NCBI GenBank assembly: GCA_020438445.1
Contig: JAGQUO010000005.1
Location: 1 to 50,881 of the forward strand
Source: Solirubrobacterales bacterium
GTDB lineage: Bacteria; Actinomycetota; Thermoleophilia; Solirubrobacterales; 70-9
DNA: 50,881 bases
Direction of reading: 5' to 3'
In this document: in pieces, positions 17,189-19,666 of the stretch
Layout: the number at the start of each line of letters is the position of its first letter
Numbering within the stretch: position 1 is the stretch's first letter
The notes under the pieces: model-generated
What the model was told of the DNA's origin: nothing
The model's input: the letters and a program-made list of their open reading frames with translations, nothing else
Databases searched by the model: none
Translations under genes and position numbers: made by a program

Positions 17189-19570
17189 TCAGCGGCAGTT
17201 GTCGCGGCGGGGGACCGGCGGAAACGGGAGGTCGGCCACCACTGCCGTCTCGAGATAGTCGTTCTCGCGGGCGTCGCCCGATCCCGGCGCCAGGGCAGCG
17301 CCGATCGCGCGCAGCTCGGAGCGGGGGCCGTCGGGGGCCGCCCAGGGAGCGAGCCCGAGGAACTCGCGCTTCGGGCCTGCGTAGACCTCGTAGGGAGCGG
17401 GGTCCTCGGGGAGGAAGCGGTCGTTGCCGACGTAGTTGCAGCTCGCCTTCGCGGGCTTGACGCCGCGCGGCCCCTTCAGCCCGCGCTGGGTTATCGCCGT
17501 CTGGCCGTCGAAGACGAGGTCCGCGAGGTTCCCGACCATGTGCGGGGTGACGTTGTAGTCGAACCTCACCGTCGGGTCGGCAACGGCCCTCCAGGTCGAC
17601 GACATCCACTCGAGCGGCTGCCACTCGCCCGGCGTGGCCCAGAGCCCGGGGTTGGCCTCGTCCTGCATCACGACGTTGGCACCGAGCGCGTCGAGGCAGT
17701 ACATGTAGTAGCTGGACGTGTCCGAGCAGGGATCGATGCCGGGTCCGGGAGCCTCGCCGAACGGGGTCACCGGGCCGCCGTCGTAGACGAACGCGGGCAG
17801 GCTCGTCGCGAACGACATCCGCGCCTGCGTGCCGGGGATGCGATAGGGCCGGACGTTCTCGATCGCGTCGGGGCCCGTGCTCGGCCCCGGGGTCAGGCTG
17901 ATCAGGTTCTCGATGTCCGTCAGCGGCACCTTCTTGTTGCTGGCGACGACGTTTCGGAGCGGTCGCGGCCCGTCCGGCGTCACGTTCTCCGGTCCCCACA
18001 TGAACGCCTCGTTGTAGACCTCCGGGCCGGTGGCGACGAAGGCGCTCTGCGGGTCCTTCACGTCCGGGTCGGCGAACTCGTCGATCTCCGCCGGATCGAC
18101 CGATTCGCGGAACTCGGCCTGGTTGTTCGAGCCGAGGATGTAGACGCCGTAGCGGCGCGCGAGATCGCTGAACGTCTGCATCCAGCCGCGCGCGAACGTG
18201 TCGGTGCCGGCCACGAACGCCTGCGAGAAGCCGGGGACCCCGTCGAAGCGGTCCGCATAGGCGGATTCCTGGGAGGCGTAGGCGGCATCGAGCGTGCCGA
18301 GCGCCACCGCTACGCCGCACGGCGACGGAATCCCCTCGCAGCCGGGGATGTTGCCCGGATCGGAGAAGATCTCGCGCGTCTCGGCCCCACGCGAGCCGGT
18401 CGCCAGCGTCATCAACCCGACGTCCTCGTTCAGCGCGACCACGTTCGGTCGCTTCCCGGCCAGGTGCGGCACGACGTAGTCGCGGATCATGCACTCGATC
18501 TTCCGGCGGAAGGACCGGTAGCTGACGACGTTCGTCAGGTCCTGCTTGTACTGCAGCGCGAAGACCCGCGGCGCCCCCTTGGCGGGGTGGAGGTTGACGA
18601 CGGGCCTGGCGAGGTTGTCGGCGCGCAGGCCGGCGCATGCGCGCTTCGACGGCGCCCGGGGGACCGGGGGCGGGTCCGGCTCGACCGCCTTCGCCGCGCG
18701 GCGCGCGACGGCCGGATCGTTGGCGATCAGCGCGTCGGCGCCCGAGCGCGTGGCCTTCCGGACCGGAGCGCGCTCGTCGAACGTGAACGGGACGACCTGG
18801 AGGCCCTTCGCGTGGGCTTCCGTGATCAGCTCGCGGCTGACCGGCCACTGCGGAGAGATGTAGTCGAACCCGCTCGCATCCGCGATCGCGGCCGCCACGC
18901 CGTTGGTGCTCTGGAAGCTGAGGTACGAGTATTCGACGGCATCGAAGTACGCGTCGGCCTGGAACGGCGTCAGGTTCCCGGGCAGGAAGCTCTGGAGGAT
19001 CAGATCGGAGGGTGGGAACCCGCTCTGCTCGATCTGCTGCGCCATCGCGGTCACGAAGCCGCTCGTCGGGTCGTAGTCGGGATCGGTCGGATAGTTGTTG
19101 ACCTCGAGGTTGACCCCGACTCCCTTGCGCTTCGCCAGCGCGAGCGCCTGGACCATCGTCGGCACCTTCGCTCGGCGATCATCACGCCGGCCGAGGTGCC
19201 GAGAGACCTCGTCGGTGCCGAGGATGTCGATCTCGCAGTCGCGGCGGATCTCGGCCAGCGTCCGGTCGGAGACGAGCCCCGTGCAGGTCGTCGTCCGCTT
19301 CAGGGAAGCATCGTGCATGATCACGGCGCGGCCGTCGGCCGTCATCCGCGTGTCCATCTCGAGGACGAAACCCTTCTTCGCCGCATGCCGGAAGGCCGGC
19401 AGCGAGTTCTCGGGGTAGGCCGGACGCAGCTCTCCACGGACGGTCTTGAGCGGCCCGCCGCGATGGGCGTGGACGTAGGGCGAAGCGAGCGCCGTGGAGG
19501 CGCAGGCCAGCGCCACGACGATGCCCGCGATCATTGCGCCCGCGGTCCGGGCGGCTCCGGCACTCCTCAT
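17189..19570 (-). CDS. Secreted glycerophosphodiester phosphodiesterase fused to a carbon-nitrogen-hydrolase-like domain
   Basis: 793 aa. ATG 19570 is chosen for its AGGAG five bases upstream. A signal peptide (1-30) precedes a GDPD domain: HAHRGG (His34/His36), PENSLPAF, LEMDTRMT and VIMHD, ending near residue 295 with GADALIANDP. GDPDs release glycerol-phosphate from deacylated phospholipids. After a Pro-rich linker, residues ~320-780 resemble a nitrilase-fold amidohydrolase: VVALNED (candidate Glu), NVVASNKK (candidate Lys) and DPCSDTSSYYMYC before LGANVV (candidate nucleophile Cys). The second assignment rests on the order and context of the triad, so is less certain. The architecture is unusual. 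Confidence 0.75.
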   Translation of the reverse strand: MRSAGAARTAGAMIAGIVVALACASTALASPYVHAHRGGPLKTVRGELRPAYPENSLPAFRHAAKKGFVLEMDTRMTADGRAVIMHDASLKRTTTCTGLVSDRTLAEIRRDCEIDILGTDEVSRHLGRRDDRRAKVPTMVQALALAKRKGVGVNLEVNNYPTDPDYDPTSGFVTAMAQQIEQSGFPPSDLILQSFLPGNLTPFQADAYFDAVEYSYLSFQSTNGVAAAIADASGFDYISPQWPVSRELITEAHAKGLQVVPFTFDERAPVRKATRSGADALIANDPAVARRAAKAVEPDPPPVPRAPSKRACAGLRADNLARPVVNLHPAKGAPRVFALQYKQDLTNVVSYRSFRRKIECMIRDYVVPHLAGKRPNVVALNEDVGLMTLATGSRGAETREIFSDPGNIPGCEGIPSPCGVAVALGTLDAAYASQESAYADRFDGVPGFSQAFVAGTDTFARGWMQTFSDLARRYGVYILGSNNQAEFRESVDPAEIDEFADPDVKDPQSAFVATGPEVYNEAFMWGPENVTPDGPRPLRNVVASNKKVPLTDIENLISLTPGPSTGPDAIENVRPYRIPGTQARMSFATSLPAFVYDGGPVTPFGEAPGPGIDPCSDTSSYYMYCLDALGANVVMQDEANPGLWATPGEWQPLEWMSSTWRAVADPTVRFDYNVTPHMVGNLADLVFDGQTAITQRGLKGPRGVKPAKASCNYVGNDRFLPEDPAPYEVYAGPKREFLGLAPWAAPDGPRSELRAIGAALAPGSGDARENDYLETAVVADLPFPPVPRRDNCR

Positions 19571-19666
19571 TCCGTCTCCTCTCCCCACGAAGTCGCTCGA
19601 GTCTAGTCGGGCCGGCGCGGATCGACGTCACTTGATCTCTCGCCGAGGGCGGCTAGCTTCGGCGTC

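What the first reader, a model, noticed from the sequence alone, without database searches (positions are those of the whole stretch)
17189..19570. Secreted fusion of glycerophosphodiester phosphodiesterase with a nitrilase-like amidohydrolase domain
The N-terminal half has all GDPD motifs; the long C-terminal half shows Glu, Lys and Cys in the order and context of the CN-hydrolase triad (NED, SNKK, DPCSD before a GANVV strand). A secreted enzyme that could cut both a phosphodiester and an amide suggests a two-step attack on N-acyl phospholipids, lipoproteins or an amide-linked glycerophosphate polymer.
Basis: partly seen in the sequence, partly recalled or inferred. Interest (0 to 1): 0.62.

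Follow-up and report, generated by a model that had tools for sequence, protein, structure and literature searches.

The report
Secreted phosphodiesterase fused to serine nitrilase-fold domain
An actinobacterium secretes a phosphodiesterase joined to a domain with the nitrilase fold in which the catalytic cysteine is replaced, throughout a large and diverse family, by a serine; this suggests either an undescribed serine version of a classic cysteine enzyme or a conserved non-catalytic relative.

Summary
The gene lies on the MINUS strand (17189-19570, 793 aa). A signal peptide is followed by a GDPD domain (Pfam E=4e-29) and a C-terminal domain (aa 311-793) that no family library recognises. C615 (DPCSD) lies in an insertion that distant relatives lack; the nucleophile column holds Ser590 (FATS-LPAF). 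Glu, Lys, a fourth-position Glu (E554) and this Ser occur together in 41 of 43 sequences, with identity down to about 23%. One relative has Cys there; one lost Glu, Lys and Ser. The GDPD fusion arose once (support 97). In 7 of 20 genomes the gene adjoins a Tat-exported flavin amine oxidase. Best reading: an extracytoplasmic bifunctional hydrolase with a natural Ser nucleophile, perhaps degrading N-acyl or O-acyl glycerophosphodiesters. Activity and substrate are untested; a binding pseudoenzyme is the main rival.

The parts
17189..19570 (-). Complete gene, 793 aa (ATG start; in-frame GTG at 19588 possible)
   Evidence: ORF list and translation; orthologues of the same layout in L001, L002, L003, L004, L006, L009, L011, L012, L013, L040
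19484..19570 (-). N-terminal signal peptide, about aa 1-29 (ends ...STALA-SP)
   Evidence: read directly from the translation; orthologues start the same way; no signal-peptide predictor was run
18710..19420 (-). GDPD domain, aa 51-287
   Evidence: Pfam PF03009 E=4.2e-29, genome search gives the same span; HRG, E-N, LE-D, HD and the later Glu conserved, but Lys of E-I-K is Asn (aa 164) only in this protein
17192..18640 (-). C-terminal region aa 311-793, nitrilase-fold domain
   Evidence: AlphaFold2 model pLDDT 94.5, pTM 0.94; PDB fold search; profile comparison
18425..18427 (-). Glu382, catalytic-base column of CN hydrolases
   Evidence: conserved in 41 of 42 full-span homologues; aligns with the Glu of Cys nitrilases
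17930..17932 (-). Lys547, catalytic-lysine column
   Evidence: directly follows predicted strand 231-236 of the domain
17909..17911 (-). Glu554, position of the fourth catalytic Glu (seven residues after Lys)
   Evidence: conserved in all 42 full-span homologues; role of a fourth Glu in Lnt: PMC5500890
17801..17803 (-). Ser590 (codon AGC), nucleophile column, Cys in ordinary nitrilases
   Evidence: aligned with the catalytic Cys by profile comparison and multiple alignment; Ser in 41 of 43 homologues, Cys in L106, Gly in L054
17726..17728 (-).
   Evidence: inside an insertion absent from distant homologues; lower model confidence in the stretch between Ser590 and C615

Best explanation
A secreted, two-domain hydrolase. 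SHOWN by computation: (1) an N-terminal GDPD domain; (2) a C-terminal domain of the nitrilase fold that keeps the catalytic Glu, the Lys and a fourth-position Glu but has Ser at the nucleophile position; this Ser is a fixed feature of a large family rather than local decay. INFERRED: (3) the C-terminal domain is catalytically active, with Glu382 activating Ser590 to form an acyl-ester intermediate that is then hydrolysed or transferred; (4) the GDPD domain cleaves glycerophosphodiesters outside the cell, and the Ser domain removes an acyl group (amide or ester) from the same molecule or the released product; (5) the amine freed may be oxidised by the Tat-exported flavin amine oxidase encoded next door in several relatives. 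A candidate substrate is an N-acyl glycerophosphoethanolamine.
For: GDPD. Fold: model pLDDT 94.5 / pTM 0.94; all 50 listed PDB matches are nitrilase-superfamily proteins or an NAD synthetase that carries such a domain, best E=8e-9. Homology: profile comparison with nine Cys nitrilases 97%, E=9e-11, with Ser590 opposite the catalytic Cys; intermediate relative L021 above the Pfam CN_hydrolase cut-off (3.6e-6), L057 too; Cys-bearing relative L106 finds this protein at 2.7e-9 and ordinary nitrilases at 1e-8 to 1e-5. Conservation: Glu, Lys, Glu, Ser together in 41 of 43 sequences, identity to the query down to about 23%; the one row that lost Ser without having Cys also lost Glu and Lys (L054), as expected if they act together. 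Ser forms lie on one side of a branch against Cys nitrilases (SH-aLRT 91), GDPD fusion once (97). Purifying selection, dN/dS 0.20. Exported amine oxidase adjacent in 7 of 20 genomes, in both same-strand and divergent order.
Against: No activity data. Cys-to-Ser variants of nitrilases exist in the PDB as deliberate mutants for ligand-bound structures (4hgd yeast Nit2 C169S, 5nz5; listed), which suggests that Ser is usually a poor nucleophile in this fold. The amine oxidase is not next to the gene in the window's own genome, nor in most others. The window's GDPD has Asn instead of the Lys kept by its orthologues at aa 164.
Confidence: 0.5

Rival explanations
1. Conserved pseudoenzyme: the Cys-to-Ser change removed hydrolase activity and the pocket now binds a ligand (sensor, substrate-capture module for GDPD, or scaffold). 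Conservation reflects ligand binding.
For: Cys-to-Ser nitrilases are used in crystallography as mutants (entries 4hgd and 5nz5). Several relatives couple the domain to propeller-type repeats that may only bind. One relative (L054) has lost Glu, Lys and Ser and yet keeps the fold signature.
Against: Glu, Lys, the fourth Glu and Ser are kept together in 41 sequences over large divergence, including the general base, which a pure binder would not need. Ser, rather than Ala, Gly or Thr, is fixed.
Confidence: 0.33
2. Acyltransferase or esterase rather than amidase: the Ser domain transfers or hydrolyses O-acyl groups on glycerophospholipid-derived or envelope molecules, in the manner of Lnt, which takes an acyl chain from phospholipid. 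(A variant of the best explanation, not exclusive of it.)
For: A fourth Glu in the loop after Lys, seven residues on, as in Lnt where it is eight residues on and needed for the acyl-enzyme step (PMC5500890); extracytoplasmic location; fusion to a glycerophosphodiester enzyme.
Against: No membrane domain; the fold matches shown are soluble amidases and Nit2 proteins, not Lnt.
Confidence: 0.3
3. One reading: an intact cysteine amidohydrolase with the DPCSD Cys as nucleophile.
For: C615 is conserved in the near family (21 of 22 rows), and a narrow profile comparison weakly aligns it with the catalytic Cys (probability 0.4%).
Against: With the broad family the alignment moves to Ser590 at 97%; C615 lies in an insertion absent from 20 distant homologues; it does not follow the strand that carries the nucleophile elbow.
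Confidence: 0.03
4. The two domains are merely co-secreted with unrelated substrates (for example phosphate scavenging by GDPD and nitrogen scavenging by the other).
For: Standalone forms of the C-terminal domain without GDPD occur (L005, L016, L041, L051-L053, L091, L092, L094).
Against: The fusion has a single, retained origin over diverse genera.
Confidence: 0.3

Closest known systems
CN_hydrolase / nitrilase superfamily (PF00795), e.g. Nit2-like proteins and the Nesterenkonia and Pyrococcus amidases
   Same: Fold, order and context of Glu, Lys and nucleophile elbow, fourth Glu
   Different: Nucleophile Cys is Ser throughout the family; about 100 extra residues between Glu and Lys; Cys-containing insertion after the elbow; secreted and fused; no Pfam hit of its own
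GDPD family (PF03009), glycerophosphodiester phosphodiesterases
   Same: Domain match over 237 residues and active-site motifs
   Different: Fused to a nitrilase-fold domain; Lys 164 is Asn in this protein
Apolipoprotein N-acyltransferase Lnt
   Same: Extracytoplasmic nitrilase-fold domain with Glu, Lys and a nearby fourth Glu (PMC5500890)
   Different: No multi-pass membrane domain; Ser instead of the Lnt Cys387; GDPD fused
Cys-bearing nitrilases L125, L127, L133 and L106
   Same: L125 has the same long spacer between Glu and Lys, and L106 the same downstream block (NPMMVG...FEGQ)
   Different: They keep the catalytic Cys and no GDPD domain was found with them

Membership tests
GDPD (PF03009) | Profile match above curated cut-off | tested here: met
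   102.8 bits against 23.6
GDPD (PF03009) | Active-site motifs HRG, E-N, E-x-D, HD, later Glu | tested here: met
   present and aligned with 10 orthologues
GDPD (PF03009) | Lys in the E-I-K motif (not known to be strictly required) | tested here: not met
   Asn164 here, Lys in all 10 orthologues compared
GDPD (PF03009) | Hydrolysis of glycerophosphodiesters | not testable with these tools
   needs purified protein
Nitrilase superfamily (CN_hydrolase) | alpha-beta-beta-alpha fold | tested here: met
   confident model and PDB matches all of this fold; TM-scores normalised by target mostly 0.5-0.6
Nitrilase superfamily (CN_hydrolase) | Sequence homology | tested here: met
   through relatives: 97%, E=9e-11; L021 above Pfam cut-off; the window domain alone has no Pfam hit
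Nitrilase superfamily (CN_hydrolase) | Catalytic Glu | tested here: met
   E382
Nitrilase superfamily (CN_hydrolase) | Catalytic Lys | tested here: met
   K547
Nitrilase superfamily (CN_hydrolase) | Catalytic Cys | tested here: not met
   Ser590 in that column; Ser in 41 of 43 homologues
Nitrilase superfamily (CN_hydrolase) | Triad residues within contact distance | not testable with these tools
   model coordinates not given out; only strand positions seen
Nitrilase superfamily (CN_hydrolase) | Cleavage or transfer at a C-N bond through an acyl-enzyme | not testable with these tools
   needs an assay
Lnt | Multi-pass membrane domain | tested here: not met
   only one clear hydrophobic stretch, the signal peptide, in the translation

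The most novel reading that the evidence does not exclude
A natural serine-nucleophile branch of the nitrilase superfamily, in which Glu-Lys-Ser replaced Glu-Lys-Cys and diversified into GDPD-fused, standalone and propeller-fused enzymes, most of them extracytoplasmic, in several classes of one phylum.
Probability: 0.5. Interest if true: 0.75.

Novelty: new variant of a known kind. Interest (0 to 1): 0.6.

Why it matters
Nitrilase-superfamily chemistry is described as depending on a Cys nucleophile. A divergent family that fixed Ser there while keeping the other catalytic residues would be a natural experiment on nucleophile exchange, could open an amidase, esterase or acyltransferase class that current family models do not see, and gives a testable extracytoplasmic lipid-salvage pathway (phosphodiesterase, acyl hydrolase, amine oxidase) in little-studied actinobacteria. 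If inactive, it is a large conserved pseudoenzyme family, also undescribed as far as the held papers show.

Tried and rejected
Single-sequence AlphaFold model of the whole protein was useless (pLDDT 33) and was replaced by an alignment-based model of the C-terminal region. Narrow-family profile comparison with Cys nitrilases failed and put C615 near the Cys (probability 0.4%); the broad-family comparison was used instead. Direct Pfam, NCBIfam and PDB sequence searches of the C-terminal half gave nothing. Gene order around the window gene is not conserved in most relatives; neighbours in the window (moaA, HNH, GH25, GreA, glycosyltransferase) suggest no pathway. A lysyl-oxidase-like neighbour (L111) and the gene between amine oxidase and family gene in G405 were compared and are unrelated. 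Viral fold search gave one weak CN-hydrolase match only. Literature searches for natural Ser nitrilases, nitrilase pseudoenzymes or GDPD-nitrilase fusions found none; the library lacks most subscription papers, so absence is weak evidence.

Full report
What was checked. The interval 17189-19570 is fully open on the minus strand and encodes 793 aa. The plus strand carries a 688-aa open frame over the same DNA (17540-19606), and another minus-strand frame gives 647 aa; both look like shadow frames of GC-rich DNA. The translated minus-strand frame has Pfam support and orthologues, and dN/dS against the nearest one (L001) is 0.33 for GDPD and 0.20 for the C-terminal domain.

N-terminal half. A signal peptide (ending ...STALA-SP) precedes a GDPD domain, aa 51-287, E=4.2e-29. 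The HRG, E-N, LE-D, HD motifs and the later Glu are invariant among 11 fused proteins, but the Lys of the E-I-K motif is Asn164 in the window protein alone. Activity of this particular GDPD is therefore not certain.

C-terminal half. No family model and no solved sequence matches aa 311-793. Relatives were collected from public genomes: six named contigs, among them Solirubrobacterales and Paraconexibacter, then 15 of 101 relatives, 22 of 399 genomes of the class, 15 of 397 of the phylum, and searches in other classes and the order. They fall into GDPD-fused, standalone secreted, and propeller-fused types (Pfam); some propeller-fused ones appear to start without a signal peptide.

Fold. AlphaFold2 with the 43-row alignment A3 gave pLDDT 94.5 and pTM 0.94. 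All 50 PDB matches shown are nitrilase-superfamily chains or an NAD synthetase that contains such a domain, from E=8.3e-9. TM-scores normalised by target length are mostly 0.5-0.6; the protein is much longer than the targets because of insertions. Predicted strands end just before E72, K237 and S280 of the domain (full-length E382, K547, S590), the usual places of the catalytic residues. Distances could not be measured.

Which residue is the nucleophile. Profile comparison of the broad family with nine ordinary Cys nitrilases gives 97% and E=9e-11 and puts Ser590 opposite the Cys of ICYD. A joint alignment with Cys nitrilases L118, L121, L125, L127 and L133 agrees. L106, a Cys-bearing relative at a contig end, reads VSVAICYDAFF...SANPHEW...NPMMVGPLKEMVFEGQSSI against MSFATSLPAF...EANPGLW...TPHMVGNLADLVFDGQTAI in the window, and its fragment finds the window gene at 2.7e-9 as well as ordinary nitrilases. 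Codon 590 is AGC, one base from the Cys codon TGC.

Conservation. Glu, Lys, the fourth-position Glu and Ser are all present in 41 of 43 rows. L106 covers only the elbow region and has Cys. L054 has lost Glu (Ala), Lys (Arg) and Ser (Gly) but keeps the fourth-position Glu and much of the fold signature. The fourth Glu in Lnt is needed for acyl-enzyme formation (PMC5500890). In a tree rooted on Cys nitrilases the Ser forms group together (SH-aLRT 91, quick method, some long branches), and the GDPD fusion has one origin (97).

Context. The window's neighbours suggest no pathway. But in 7 of 20 genomes with a near-family gene (G005, G060, G379, G403, G802, G803, G817) the adjacent gene is a flavin amine oxidase (PF01593), with a twin-arginine type signal (TRRGLLGGAAAGAA and the like) wherever its N-terminus is covered. 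Most genomes hold one to seven matches to this oxidase, fragments included. Chance adjacency of 7 in 20 is about 1e-11 under a crude independence model. The genomes are related, so this overstates it, but gene order differs (upstream same strand, downstream same strand, divergent), which argues for a functional tie. In the window's genome the oxidase homologues lie on other contigs.

Interpretation. Shown by computation: GDPD domain, nitrilase fold, Glu-Lys-Glu-Ser arrangement, family-wide fixation of Ser. Inferred: catalysis by Ser590, extracytoplasmic acyl removal coupled to GDPD, and onward oxidation of the amine. The N-acyl glycerophosphoethanolamine idea fits all three partners but has no direct evidence. 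The strongest rival is a binding pseudoenzyme. By the strict membership test it should not be filed as a Glu-Lys-Cys nitrilase, since the Cys was tested and is absent; it is a nitrilase-fold homologue with a natural Ser.

Noticed in passing
L005:4382-5767, L109:3609-5123, L003:3414-5000 region, L140:5079-6689, L142:2688-4172, L141:1557-3278: Tat-signal flavin amine oxidase beside or near the family gene in several genera and in different orientations, suggesting a shared extracytoplasmic pathway.
   Followed up: partly
L017-L021, L049, L050, L056-L058, L067, L070-L076: Relatives with the same Ser nitrilase-fold domain followed by BNR/Asp-box-like propeller repeats instead of preceded by GDPD, found also in another class of the phylum and there probably without a signal peptide.
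   Followed up: partly
L054:1489-2907 (+): A relative that has lost Glu, Lys and Ser at the catalytic positions: a likely true pseudoenzyme inside the group.
   Followed up: no
window 19079-19081 (-), aa 164: Asn replaces the GDPD Lys that all ten compared orthologues keep (E-V-N against E-I-K).
   Followed up: no
L106:1-1400: Cys-bearing relative at a contig end, its reading frame broken in places near the contig start; followed by unrelated repeat-like domains.
   Followed up: partly
L125:1414-2436 (-): Cys nitrilase with the same long Glu-to-Lys spacer as the Ser family, a candidate for its closest Cys ancestor type.
   Followed up: partly
window:16117-17136 (-): moaA-like radical SAM gene (Mob_synth_C, E=4e-41) 52 bases downstream on the same strand; not linked to the family elsewhere.
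   Followed up: no
L111:7326-8873 (-): Lysyl-oxidase-domain protein overlapping the 5' end of a standalone family gene; another possible amine-oxidising neighbour.
   Followed up: no
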